From an uncultured Erythrobacter sp. (lineage in GTDB: Bacteria; Pseudomonadota; Alphaproteobacteria; Sphingomonadales; Sphingomonadaceae): 64,000 nucleotides of DNA. The position numbers and the translations under genes were made by a program. How positions within the stretch are numbered: position 1 is the first letter of the stretch; each line of letters begins with the position of its first letter. This document shows positions 42,704 to 47,306 of the stretch, piece by piece. The DNA lies in contig CANKYI010000001.1 in the NCBI GenBank assembly GCA_947488085.1, forward strand, positions 1,116,001-1,180,000, given 5' to 3'. The notes under the pieces are model-generated. The model did no database searches. It saw only the letters and a program-made list of their open reading frames with translations, and was not told the DNA's origin.

Positions 42704-43341
42704 CCAATGGTTCAGGCCCCAACGCTTCGGGCCCCTTCGGCTCCGGCCCGCTAGGCTCAACCAAGATCATCTTCATCATCATCGCCATCGCGTGGGTGGT
42801 GATCGTCGCGCGTGCTTACATGAATGTGAAAGGCACCGACGCTCTCGTCGCGGTCGTGCCGCAATCAGAGGTTCAAGCCTTCGCCCGAAACGAGCTGGAC
42901 GCGTTGCAAAATCCCAGTTTTACCGGCGATAAAGAGCTGTGCGGGATCATCTTTGAAACCAGCGAAGGCGAGTTGGGCGTATCTCGACCCACTAGCGGCG
43001 ACGAAGCGAGCTGCGACATCAGTTTCTTTGATGAGCCCGGCATGGTGCCCGTCGCCAGCTTTCACACCCACGGCAAACATTCGGTTCAATATGACGGCGA
43101 AGTGCCGTCATTAGTCGATATTCAAAGCGATGTAGCGACCGGTATGGATGGCTATGTTGCGACACCGGGCGGGCGGTTTTGGCATATCGACCATAAGCGG
43201 GCGACCGCGCGCATGGTCTGCGGACCGGGCTGCATCACCCAAGATCCGAATTATCAGCCCTGCAATGATGAAGCGATTGCACAAAACTACACAATCGCCG
43301 AACTGCGCCAGCGCTTTAATGGCGATGACGCTTTTTGCTGA
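42685..43341 (+). CDS. DUF4329 (JAB-like) membrane-anchored protein
   Basis: Gly/Ser/Pro-rich N-terminus, one TM segment, 'ELCGIIFETSEGELGVSRPTSG...VASFHTHGKHS'. Confidence 0.7.
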   Translation: MNKSTTPNGSGPNASGPFGSGPLGSTKIIFIIIAIAWVVIVARAYMNVKGTDALVAVVPQSEVQAFARNELDALQNPSFTGDKELCGIIFETSEGELGVSRPTSGDEASCDISFFDEPGMVPVASFHTHGKHSVQYDGEVPSLVDIQSDVATGMDGYVATPGGRFWHIDHKRATARMVCGPGCITQDPNYQPCNDEAIAQNYTIAELRQRFNGDDAFC

Positions 43342-43345
43342 ACGC

Positions 43346-43386
43346 AAAAAATTGCCCGCAAGGAGGTCTTCTCTCCTTGCGGGCAA
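43346..43386 (-). terminator. Intrinsic terminator ending the minus-strand YHS/Cys-repeat unit
   Basis: Perfect 14-bp stem TTGCCCGCAAGGAG/CTCCTTGCGGGCAA followed on the minus strand by T6. Confidence 0.9.
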
Positions 43387-43399
43387 GTCTATGAAATGG

Positions 43400-43424
43400 T
43401 GATCATCAGGGGGGAGAGTGATCA
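43400..43424 (-). promoter_or_regulatory. C-loop hairpin 1 (3' UTR of the Cys-repeat gene)
   Basis: Minus strand TGATCA-CTCTCCCCCCTGA-TGATCA. Confidence 0.45.
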
Positions 43425-43538
43425 ATGAATTTGCCTGTTCGCGAATGCTGCAAGGGGGACAGCGAACCCGCGAAAAAATGGGCGTGACCGAGGGCACTAG
43501 GAGGAACGGTCCCCGGCCACACCCAAAATGCACACCCG

Positions 43539-43955
43539 TCAGGCAGCGGGCGCACAAGCTGAAGCTGAACAATCGCTTGCGGCGCAGCACGCAGCGGCAC
43601 AGGCCGATGCAGAACAAGCTGATGCGTCACATGCGGCGGCACAGGCTGATGAAGAGCAAGCTGATGCGTCACAGGCAGCGGCACAAGCCGACGCAGCACA
43701 TGCATTGGCAGCACAAGCCGCTGCTGCACACGCAGCCGCTTGACGCTCAGCGCGCGCCTGACGGCGGGCTTCACGAGCTGCACGGCGTTCGGCTGCACTC
43801 GTGGTGCTAGCGCTGCTGCGGCTGCTGCTGGAGAAGCCGCTTGGGCCGCAAGGCGCATCTGCCAGCGCTGGTGCGCCGGCGCTTGCTGCGGCAAGGCCGC
43901 CTGCAACCATAAGCATCTTCGCAAGGTTCATCGGGGTCTTTGAAGTCTGTGTCAT
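43539..43955 (-). CDS. Exported Ala/Cys-repeat protein, unknown function
   Basis: Signal peptide '...MLMVAGGLAAASAGAPALA', then Cys every 4-5 residues ('ACAAACDASACSSSACAAACDASACSAS'); SD AGAGAGG before ATG 43955. Confidence 0.7.
   Translation of the reverse strand: MTQTSKTPMNLAKMLMVAGGLAAASAGAPALADAPCGPSGFSSSSRSSASTTSAAERRAAREARRQARAERQAAACAAAACAANACAASACAAACDASACSSSACAAACDASACSASACAAACCAASDCSASACAPAA
43573..43698. repeat. Three in-frame tandem ~42-bp units within the Cys-repeat gene
   Basis: Two clear units CAAGCTGATGCGTCACAxGCxGCGGCACA... start at 43615 and 43657, preceded by a more diverged one. Confidence 0.7.
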
Positions 43956-44007
43956 CGGGTAATCCTCTCTCAAAATTGTCGTCAGTTAGGGGGTAATGGT
44001 TTGGGGT

Positions 44008-44057
44008 ATTGGCACCCCAGTCATAGGGGGGTCAGGGGGGACGACCGGGGTGCCAAT
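44008..44057 (-). promoter_or_regulatory. C-loop hairpin 2 (between the YHS and Cys-repeat genes)
   Basis: Minus strand ATTGGCACCCCGGTC-GTCCCCCCTGACCCCCCTAT-GACTGGGGTGCCAAT; 15-bp stem with one G.U. Confidence 0.65.
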
Positions 44058-44071
44058 TCGGGGGTTAGATT

Positions 44072-44551
44072 CTAATCGCCGAAACGTTTGCCATCGGGAA
44101 TTTGGGTCCAGGCAGCGTTTGCCTTTTCAATGAAGCCGGGAATGTCTTCGAACCACATGCGTTGAACCTGACGGTTCACGTTGAGGTAGAGTTTGCCATC
44201 CACGATCTTGTAAACTTGCGGATCTCCCGGTGCGAGCGAACCGCGGCTCATCGCCCAGGCGCAGTGGCCACCATATTGGGGGGCATAGGCATCGGGGTCA
44301 GCCTGAAACGCATCGGCATTTTCTTGGCTTGCGAAATGGAATTCTGCGCCGTCATGTTCGACGGTGAAACGCGCGCTGCCCATTACCGGAACACCGTCGC
44401 CGCGAAAGTAGCTGACGCTGTCATATCCGCCGAGAGCCACGTTGCCTTGGTTCACGCCAACATAGACGCCGCCATCGGCCTGGGCTGGTGCAGTCATCGC
44501 AAGTGGCGCTGCGAATGCTGCGGCTGCAATGAGGAAATATTTGAGTTTCAT
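44072..44551 (-). CDS. Exported YHS-domain-like protein
   Basis: Signal peptide; 'ALGGYDSVSYFRGDGVPVMGSARFTVEHDGAEFHFASQENADAFQADPDAYAPQYGGHCAWAMS'. Confidence 0.85.
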   Translation of the reverse strand: MKLKYFLIAAAAFAAPLAMTAPAQADGGVYVGVNQGNVALGGYDSVSYFRGDGVPVMGSARFTVEHDGAEFHFASQENADAFQADPDAYAPQYGGHCAWAMSRGSLAPGDPQVYKIVDGKLYLNVNRQVQRMWFEDIPGFIEKANAAWTQIPDGKRFGD

Positions 44552-44638
44552 CGGGGGTCTCCTAAGTACTCTTGCCTGATCAATTCTGTTTCGTGCGGCG
44601 GGCCACCCGGCCCTCTCAAAGGAGGGGTAAGGGGGTAA

Positions 44639-44665
44639 CCAACCGAATAGGGGGACTTCGGTTGG
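44639..44665 (-). promoter_or_regulatory. C-loop hairpin 3 (upstream of the YHS gene)
   Basis: Minus strand CCAACCGAA-GTCCCCCTA-TTCGGTTGG; perfect 9-bp stem. Confidence 0.55.
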
Positions 44666-44844
44666 GGGTCCTTGAGAGCTGCCAAGTGGCCGCGCACATC
44701 TGTCAGTTCGCGGCGATCACTGAATTGGTGACAGGTCGGTCAAAAAAAATTGAAAAAAGTTCTGTTATGCCCGTGTGATCCGCGCACTCTCGACACTTCG
44801 GGCGCAATCGGTCACAGCGATTTGACGCAATAAAGCAGGGGCAT

Positions 44845-46554: not shown

Positions 46555-47121
46555 TTAGTCCTGAAAATGCTCATCAGGTGAGTGGGTTGGGTAGTTGGTG
46601 TCACCGCTGGCGATGAAGCCGGGGATGTCTTTTTCCCAGTTTTCCTGAACCGCTTCGTTGAAGTTCAAGTAAAGCGTGCCGTCGACGATCTCGTAAACTT
46701 CTGGATCGCCTGGTGCCAGCGCATCATTCGCGCCGATGGCCCATGCGCAGTATCCGCCGTAAGCTGGTGCATACTTGCTTGGATCTTCGACGAATGCGTC
46801 TGCATTCTCTGCATTTGCAAAGCGATAATCGAACCCGGCATAACGCACGGTGAATTCTTCTGCGCCTTCAACAGGTACGCCGTCGCCAGTGAAGTAGCTA
46901 ACGACGTCAAAACCCGAAACGGCCAGCGTGTCGCCTTTGGTTGCGGTGTGAACAGGCCCAGTCGCTTCGCCGCCGAGATCGGCGTACAATACGGTGCCTT
47001 CAACTTGTTCAGTAGCAACCATGCTGTCGCCTTCGGGAGCGGTTTCAGCTGGTGTGCCGCAAGCAGCAAGCGTGGCGACAAGGGCGATTGCAGTCAGGGG
47101 TGCAAAAATTGACTTTTTCAT
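46555..47121 (-). CDS. Lipoprotein YHS-domain-like paralog
   Basis: Lipobox 'TLAAC'; 'VSGFDVVSYFTGDGVPVEGAEEFTVRYAGFDYRFANAENADAFVEDPSKYAPAYGGYCAWAIG'. Confidence 0.85.
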   Translation of the reverse strand: MKKSIFAPLTAIALVATLAACGTPAETAPEGDSMVATEQVEGTVLYADLGGEATGPVHTATKGDTLAVSGFDVVSYFTGDGVPVEGAEEFTVRYAGFDYRFANAENADAFVEDPSKYAPAYGGYCAWAIGANDALAPGDPEVYEIVDGTLYLNFNEAVQENWEKDIPGFIASGDTNYPTHSPDEHFQD

Positions 47122-47306
47122 AGGGGTATCCTCCTTAAGTAAAACATTCTCACCAGCGGCCTGAGTGCCGGTGACATGACGCAGTTCGCAAGCGCGCGCT
47201 CACAAGTTACAGCTTTTTTTGCGAAGAGTGAGATTTTATTCGATTTTGTCCGATCGAGTGGTTTACCCCGCTTGCAAGCCTGCGGGTTTTCGGCAAAGAC
47301 GACATC

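What the first reader, a model, noticed from the sequence alone, without database searches (positions are those of the whole stretch)
43346..44680. YHS / Cys-repeat unit whose genes are separated by hairpins with C5-C6 loops
On the minus strand the order is: hairpin 3 (CCAACCGAA-GTCCCCCTA-TTCGGTTGG), YHS gene, hairpin 2 (15-bp stem, loop GTCCCCCCTGACCCCCCTAT), Cys-repeat gene, hairpin 1 (TGATCA-CTCTCCCCCCTGA-TGATCA), then a 14-bp-stem terminator with T6. The loops share UCCCCC(C)UGA or CCCCC(C)UAU. In hairpin 2 the one non-Watson-Crick pair is G.U on the minus strand but A.C on the plus strand, which favours a functional minus-strand RNA. C-rich loops are typical of sRNAs that act like anti-Shine-Dalgarno sequences (for example the CcsR/cuckoo type in Rhodobacter). 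Extending that here is inference; the elements could instead be protein-binding sites or mRNA-stabilising elements.
Basis: partly seen in the sequence, partly recalled or inferred. Interest (0 to 1): 0.7.

Follow-up and report, generated by a model that had tools for sequence, protein, structure and literature searches.

The report
Stress RNA with anti-Shine-Dalgarno hairpin loop
A small bacterial operon carries a set of RNA hairpins, one of which shows in its loop the sequence ribosomes use to find genes; related species that lost the operon's protein genes still keep that hairpin behind the same stress-type promoter, so the RNA itself is probably a regulator.

Summary
Directly after the Cys-repeat gene is a 17-bp hairpin (E3, 43479-43525) with loop UUCCUCCUAG. 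It recurs in 35 of 114 genomes of the genus. CCUCC, the 16S anti-Shine-Dalgarno core, is invariant in 35/35, while 14 of 17 stem pairs change on both sides. Hairpin 2 (E2) is conserved (9/13 covary). Hairpin 1 is seen only in the closest relative.

All 36 loci examined have a promoter of sigma-F form, GTCACC/GAAACC-N16-CGAA. In eight genomes both protein genes are missing from the locus, scattered over the tree, yet promoter + hairpin H0 + E3 remain, five with the leader. Best reading: a sigma-F-type stress operon that doubles as precursor of an sRNA pairing through CCUCC with Shine-Dalgarno sites. The neighbouring second YHS gene is a candidate target (6-10 nt pairing in E3+ genomes, 4-6 in E3- genomes). 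There are no expression data; targets and sigma-F control are inferred. New variant of a known kind.

The parts
44707..44732 (-). Promoter-like site GTCACC-N16-CGAA (sigma-F/ECF form), with a T-rich tract upstream
   Evidence: Found in 36/36 loci at the expected place, including loci without the protein genes. Same form as the GTAACC-N16-CGAA upstream of this genome's own sigF operon and as the published Caulobacter sigma-F site (PMC3511200).
44593..44697 (-).
   Evidence: z -5.1. 11 of 16 outer pairs have changes on both sides, 95% of cells paired, 25 sequences. Kept in 5 loci that lack both protein genes.
44072..44551 (-). YHS1: YHS domain (seleno)protein family, predicted exported, 159 aa
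   Evidence: PF04945 2.9e-9; NF041384 3.7e-43.
44008..44057 (-).
   Evidence: z -6.3. 9 of 13 pairs have changes on both sides, 95.6% of cells paired, 16 sequences. Absent in some relatives.
43539..43955 (-). Cys-repeat gene: signal peptide-like N-terminus (KMLMVAGGLA) then Cys every four or five residues
   Evidence: No Pfam or NCBIfam match; orthologues with the same start and repeats of CAANP/CAASA type.
43529..43556 (-). H0: hairpin over the 3' end and stop codon of the Cys gene, loop GCCUGA
   Evidence: Folded. Stem changes compensated and loop GCCUGA kept also in loci without the gene, with one exception (GCCCGA in L084).
43479..43525 (-). E3: 17-bp hairpin with anti-Shine-Dalgarno loop UUCCUCCUAG (loop 43497-43506), followed by T6 (43473-43478), so also terminator-like
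   Evidence: 35 of 114 genus genomes (less one chance hit). CCUCC invariant 35/35. 14 of 17 pairs have changes on both sides. TTCCTCCTAG occurs once in the whole genome.
43438..43474 (-). Further hairpin with UCCCCCUUG loop
   Evidence: Read in the sequence; also in the nearest relative L003. Not seen elsewhere.
43400..43424 (-).
   Evidence: z -2.7; only in L003 besides the window.
43345..43393 (-). Terminator-like hairpin shared with the convergent DUF4329 gene
   Evidence: z -6.3; inverted repeat I1.
46555..47121 (-). YHS2: second YHS gene, lipoprotein-like; candidate target (SD AAGGAGGAUA)
   Evidence: NF041384 1.8e-40. Promoter GTAACT-N16-CGAA at 47185-47210. SD complementary to the E3 loop over 7 nt.

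Best explanation
The locus is a stress operon that is at the same time a regulatory-RNA gene. A sigma-F-type promoter drives one transcript: structured C-rich leader (E1), YHS1, hairpin E2, Cys-repeat gene, hairpins H0 and E3. E3 ends the transcript as an intrinsic terminator and presents the anti-Shine-Dalgarno sequence CCUCC in its loop. The 3' piece (H0+E3), released by cleavage or made directly where the genes are deleted, acts as an sRNA that pairs with AGGAGG-type ribosome-binding sites and lowers translation of such mRNAs under stress; the neighbouring YHS2 mRNA is a candidate target. E1 and E2 expose CCCC(C)UGA loops that would bind G-rich sequence or a protein in the same response. 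Shown: conserved, covarying minus-strand RNA structures, an invariant CCUCC loop, the promoter form, and persistence of promoter + RNA where both protein genes are absent. Inferred: transcription, processing, sigma-F control, pairing and its outcome.
For: E3 covariation and invariant loop; G-U against A-C cells 101:7. E1 and E2 covariation. Promoter form in 36/36 loci, and the same form before the genome's own DUF2282-DoxX-sigF-nrsF operon and before YHS2. RNA-only loci L072, L075, L078, L080, L082, L084, L085, L087: these genomes have a single YHS hit, YHS2, no clear Cys gene, 15-17 of 17 E3 pairs and an intact CCUCC. On a flank-gene tree the full/not-full label needs 8 changes, at least 5 of them forced by well-supported branches. 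YHS2 SD pairs with the E3 loop over 6-10 nt in E3+ genomes (27 of 35 at least 7 nt) against 4-6 nt in resolved E3- genomes; rough window baseline 4 of about 62 genes with at least 7 nt.
Against: No RNA data of any kind. CCUCC would fit any strong SD, so YHS2 complementarity may only mean a strong SD; the E3- genomes are mainly one clade, so the contrast is confounded by descent. E3 could be only a terminator. GTCACC-N15-17-CGAA is not enriched genome-wide (29 against 28 control hits), so sigma-F control rests on position and conservation. The tree is of one flanking gene.
Confidence: 0.55

Rival explanations
1. E3 is just the operon's intrinsic terminator and H0/E1/E2 are mRNA-stabilising hairpins; the RNA has no trans activity.
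For: GC-rich stem followed by T4-T7 in most loci. Strong hairpins on both sides of each gene are usual for mRNA protection (general knowledge).
Against: A terminator does not need a loop that stays CCUCC in 35/35 while the stem changes. Promoter and hairpins persist with no gene between them. TTCCTCCTAG is unique in the genome, so it is not a general terminator loop here.
Confidence: 0.2
2. Cis control: the loops are switches or protein-binding sites that control translation of YHS1 and Cys within the same mRNA, for example by pairing of CCUCC with their own SDs (UUAGGAGA, GAGAGGAU), or by export-coupled control like cutF-cutO.
For: YHS1 SD pairs with the E3 loop (-9.8 kcal/mol). All three start regions carry runs of C between SD and AUG. 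CutF precedent: a copper-binding nascent protein and an anti-SD stem-loop (PMC9973294).
Against: The RNA is kept where YHS1 and Cys are gone, so cis control of these genes cannot be its only role. E3 lies after both genes, not before one.
Confidence: 0.15
3. The hairpins act as a sponge or binding platform for an RNA-binding protein that recognises C-runs (CCCCUGA) in loops and in start regions, in the manner of CsrB with CsrA but with C instead of GGA.
For: Many C-run loops per transcript, up to six C4+ runs in one leader, and C-runs in the start regions of YHS1, YHS2 and many Cys genes.
Against: Shortest RNA-only loci (L075, L084, L087) have no C4+ run, only CCUCC. No candidate protein is known.
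Confidence: 0.1

Closest known systems
CcsR1-4 RNAs of Rhodobacter sphaeroides (cuckoo RNA / CIN1 locus with ccaF1)
   Same: Alternative-sigma-factor promoter, small-protein gene and hairpin RNAs in its 3' UTR, terminator at the end; UTR-derived sRNAs (PMC10253847, PMC8625941). The CCUCCUCCC loop motif is from general knowledge.
   Different: No DUF1127 gene; single CCUCC hairpin instead of tandem ones; different promoter class; YHS and Cys-repeat proteins; no Rfam match; proteins can be lost with the RNA kept.
RepG of Helicobacter pylori
   Same: Target pairing by a C/U-rich loop of the terminator hairpin (PMC8295292), the anatomy proposed for E3.
   Different: Independent sRNA gene, target is a G-repeat in tlpB; no operon, no sequence relation seen (Rfam scan without match).
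GsrN of Caulobacter crescentus
   Same: Alphaproteobacterial general-stress sRNA with a C-rich loop that pairs with G-rich mRNA leaders (PMC5869019).
   Different: Free-standing sigma-T-dependent gene; six-C loop rather than CCUCC; activates katG.
sX13 of Xanthomonas
   Same: Several stems with C-rich apical loops; represses mRNAs with G-rich motifs near start codons (PMC3771888).
   Different: Independent sRNA, different loops (4C/5C), other class of bacteria.
Caulobacter sigma-F (SigF-NrsF) regulon
   Same: Promoter form GTAACC-N16-CGAA and a DUF2282-DoxX-sigF-nrsF operon in this genome.
   Different: YHS and Cys-repeat genes and an RNA are not described members of that regulon in the paper read; -35 here is GTCACC or GAAACC.

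Membership tests
CcsR / cuckoo RNA (CIN1 locus) | Co-transcribed with a small DUF1127 protein | tested here: not met
   Neighbouring genes are YHS1, Cys-repeat, DUF4329, FMN_dh and inhibitor I78-like; no DUF1127.
CcsR / cuckoo RNA (CIN1 locus) | Tandem hairpins with CCUCCUCCC loops | tested here: not met
   One CCUCC hairpin with loop UUCCUCCUAG; the other loops are CCCC(C)UGA or GCCUGA.
CcsR / cuckoo RNA (CIN1 locus) | Match to a described RNA family | tested here: not met
   Only a tRNA matches Rfam 15 in the window; weak matches at 43300-44800 are far below gathering scores. Whether Rfam 15 covers every cuckoo RNA was not checked.
3' UTR-derived sRNA | Conserved RNA in the 3' UTR ending at an intrinsic terminator | tested here: met
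   H0+E3 follows the Cys gene; T4-T7 after the E3 stem in most loci; conservation.
3' UTR-derived sRNA | Stable processed transcript in cells | not testable with these tools
   Needs Northern blot or RNA-seq.
sRNA with C-rich / anti-SD target loop | Invariant C-rich sequence in an unpaired loop on a variable stem | tested here: met
   CCUCC 35/35; 14 of 17 stem pairs with changes on both sides.
sRNA with C-rich / anti-SD target loop | Pairs with G-rich or SD sequence of target mRNAs | tested here: inconclusive
   YHS2 SD complementarity 6-10 nt in E3+ genomes against 4-6 in E3-, but confounded by descent and by general SD strength.
Sigma-F (SigF-NrsF) regulon | GTAACC-N16-CGAA promoter | tested here: inconclusive
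   GTCACC/GAAACC-N16-CGAA in 36/36 loci; own sigF operon has GTAACC-N16-CGAA; genome-wide not enriched.
Sigma-F (SigF-NrsF) regulon | Genome encodes SigF and NrsF | tested here: met
   PF06532 1.7e-32 on G000:C2 next to an ECF sigma gene.
Sigma-F (SigF-NrsF) regulon | SigF-dependent expression | not testable with these tools
   Needs sigF deletion and RNA measurement.
Bufferin / MNIO-modified peptide (for the Cys-repeat protein) | Known precursor signature (DUF2282 and similar) or adjacent MNIO gene | tested here: not met
   No Pfam or NCBIfam match for the protein; the adjacent genes tested are not MNIO genes.

The most novel reading that the evidence does not exclude
A genus-specific family of sigma-F-controlled regulatory RNAs whose unit of selection is the RNA: an mRNA that is eroding, repeatedly and independently, into a free-standing sRNA gene by deletion of its coding genes, with an anti-Shine-Dalgarno terminator loop that imitates the 16S tail and lowers translation of stress-operon mRNAs such as YHS2.
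Probability: 0.4. Interest if true: 0.8.

Novelty: new variant of a known kind. Interest (0 to 1): 0.62.

Why it matters
Origins of sRNA genes from mRNA 3' ends are usually argued from single snapshots. Here one genus appears to hold the full series: operon with both genes, Cys gene only, leader plus 3' hairpins, and promoter plus 3' hairpins only, at the same genomic site. That makes the question 'is the 3' UTR sRNA selected independently of its mRNA?' directly testable. It would also add a sigma-F-linked anti-SD RNA to a metal-stress response known so far only for its proteins.

Tried and rejected
Rfam at gathering and permissive thresholds: nothing relevant. Hairpin 1 as a conserved element: rejected, only in L003. 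E3 outside the genus: 386 class genomes gave no hit from any other genus, and 401 family genomes only weak ones; the four weak family hits L091-L094 are, or look like, ordinary terminators or coding sequence without CCUCC in a conserved context; the weak genus hit G042/L090 was set aside as a chance terminator. These large scans used stricter filters that lose weak matches. Promoter as a genome-wide regulon marker: not enriched; the look-alike L114 lies inside a coding frame. SD + C-run + ATG pattern: 27 hits against 5 in the backwards control, but the control also destroys the SD-ATG order, so this says little; apart from YHS1 and YHS2 none has the promoter. Naming the organism: genome-contig searches failed three times, so the genus is unnamed here. 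Cys-gene search in RNA-only genomes is of limited sensitivity: the positive control G018 was also missed. The baseline is rough (best of several starts, one artefact at the window edge). Start codons of G134, G138, G139 were not resolved by script; one search shows UAGGAG there (6 nt). G043 and G098 (E3-) were not resolved either.

Full report
Observation. Fold energies exceed dinucleotide shuffles for the leader, hairpin 2, the 3' hairpins and the terminator, and only weakly for hairpin 1. The genome is 3.42 Mb; TCCCCCCTGA occurs twice in it, both here.

What was missed. Immediately after the Cys-repeat stop codon is hairpin E3 (43479-43525), whose loop UUCCUCCUAG contains CCUCC, the core of the 16S anti-Shine-Dalgarno sequence. 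TTCCTCCTAG occurs once in the genome. A hairpin H0 (43529-43556) overlaps the last codons and stop of the Cys gene, with loop GCCUGA.

Conservation. Orthologues of YHS1 with the same gene order were found in the same genus. A covariance model of E3 built from nine sequences (pair counts) found E3 in 36 of 114 genus genomes, one of which I judge a chance terminator (G042), leaving 35. Aligned, CCUCC is identical in 35/35; 91.4% of pair cells are standard (shuffles 79.6 +/- 1.0) and 14 of 17 pairs change on both sides. That alignment was fitted to the structure, but the independent MAFFT alignment of nine sequences shows the same. E1: 25 sequences, 95.2% paired, 11 of 16 pairs change on both sides. 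E2: 16 sequences, 95.6% paired, 9 of 13. Sliding controls collapse in every case. Over E3 there are 101 G-U cells and 7 A-C cells, so the minus strand is the RNA that folds. Outside the genus nothing convincing was found.

RNA without the proteins. In eight of the 35 genomes (L072, L075, L078, L080, L082, L084, L085, L087) the place between promoter and E3 holds neither YHS1 nor the Cys gene. These genomes have one YHS hit, YHS2, whereas genomes with the full operon have two. A ninth (L066) lost YHS1 only. Five of the eight keep E1, and three have promoter, H0 and E3 only. H0 keeps GCCUGA in its loop although no gene ends there, except GCCCGA in L084. E3 keeps CCUCC and 15-17 of 17 pairs in all eight. 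On a tree of the divergent flanking FMN-dehydrogenase gene the full/not-full label needs 8 changes, with at least 5 forced by well-supported branches. That these are losses rather than gains is inferred from remnants of the Cys gene's 3' end; one flanking gene is not a species tree.

Promoter. All 36 loci with a readable upstream region have GTCACC or GAAACC, 16 bases, CGAA at the same place. The motif letters were used to pick the site, but T at -1 (36/36), A at +6 and G at +21 (32/36 each) and an A/T tract upstream were not. Caulobacter sigma-F uses GTAACC-N16-CGAA and answers to chromium and cadmium (PMC3511200). This genome has a DUF2282-like - DoxX-like - ECF sigma - NrsF operon (NrsF: PF06532 1.7e-32; the other three read by eye from the translations) preceded by GTAACCAATGTCTTTGGTGACGCGAA, and YHS2 has GTAACT-N16-CGAA. 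Sigma-F control is therefore likely but inferred; the bare pattern is not enriched genome-wide.

How it may work. E3 is followed by T4-T7 in most loci, so it can end the transcript and carry the pairing loop at once, as in RepG (PMC8295292). CCUCC can pair with SD sequences. The neighbouring YHS2 is present in all 35 E3+ genomes and its SD is complementary to the E3 loop of the same genome over 6-10 nt (at least 7 in 27 of 35), against 4-6 nt in the resolved E3- genomes that have YHS2. A rough baseline in the window is 4 of about 62 genes with at least 7 nt. This is suggestive only: strong SDs fit CCUCC anyway, and the E3- genomes are mostly one group. E1 and E2 loops (CCCC(C)UGA) resemble the C-rich loops of GsrN and sX13 but their partner is unknown.

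Compared with known systems. The layout (stress-sigma promoter, small-protein genes, hairpin RNAs in UTRs, terminator) is closest to the ccaF1-CcsR locus of Rhodobacter, but DUF1127, the tandem CCUCCUCCC hairpins and any Rfam match are absent, so it is not filed as a member. It works, in my reading, like a UTR-derived anti-SD sRNA.

Certainty. Conserved functional minus-strand RNA: about 0.95. RNA function beyond cis effects on YHS1 and Cys: about 0.75. Trans pairing with SDs: about 0.55. YHS2 as a real target: about 0.35. Sigma-F control: about 0.75.

Noticed in passing
46555-47121 (-), promoter 47185-47210: Second YHS gene (lipoprotein-like) with its own GTAACT-N16-CGAA promoter and SD AAGGAGGAUACCCC; its orthologues occur in all E3+ genomes and in ten without E3.
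   Followed up: partly
43955-43539 (-) and orthologues in L003-L013, L065-L089: Unclassified exported-looking Cys-repeat protein with variable numbers of CAANP or CAASA-type units; no Pfam or NCBIfam family; a metal-binding role is a guess.
   Followed up: partly
L014, L015, L016, L018, just after the YHS stop: Relatives without the Cys gene have a strong hairpin with a C4-C7 loop (for example GGCGGGUUCCCCCCCUUUGCGGCCCGCC) directly after the YHS stop codon, possibly a degenerate or ancestral form of the C-loop element.
   Followed up: no
L006, L012, L068, L069, L071, L073, L076, L078, L081, 47-95 nt after the E3 loop: A GGAGG (for example UUAGGAGGAU) complementary to the E3 loop lies downstream on the same strand in about nine loci; it might sequester the loop or belong to the next terminator.
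   Followed up: no
start regions of YHS1, YHS2 and many Cys genes: A run of three to six C sits between SD and start codon (GGAGACCCCCGAUG, GGAUACCCCUAUG, GGAAUACCCCAAUG); meaning unknown.
   Followed up: partly
G000:C2:143950-146100 (L124, L125): DUF2282-like - DoxX-like - ECF sigma - NrsF operon with an exact sigma-F promoter; no DUF692 (MNIO) or DUF2063 gene seen between its members by eye.
   Followed up: partly
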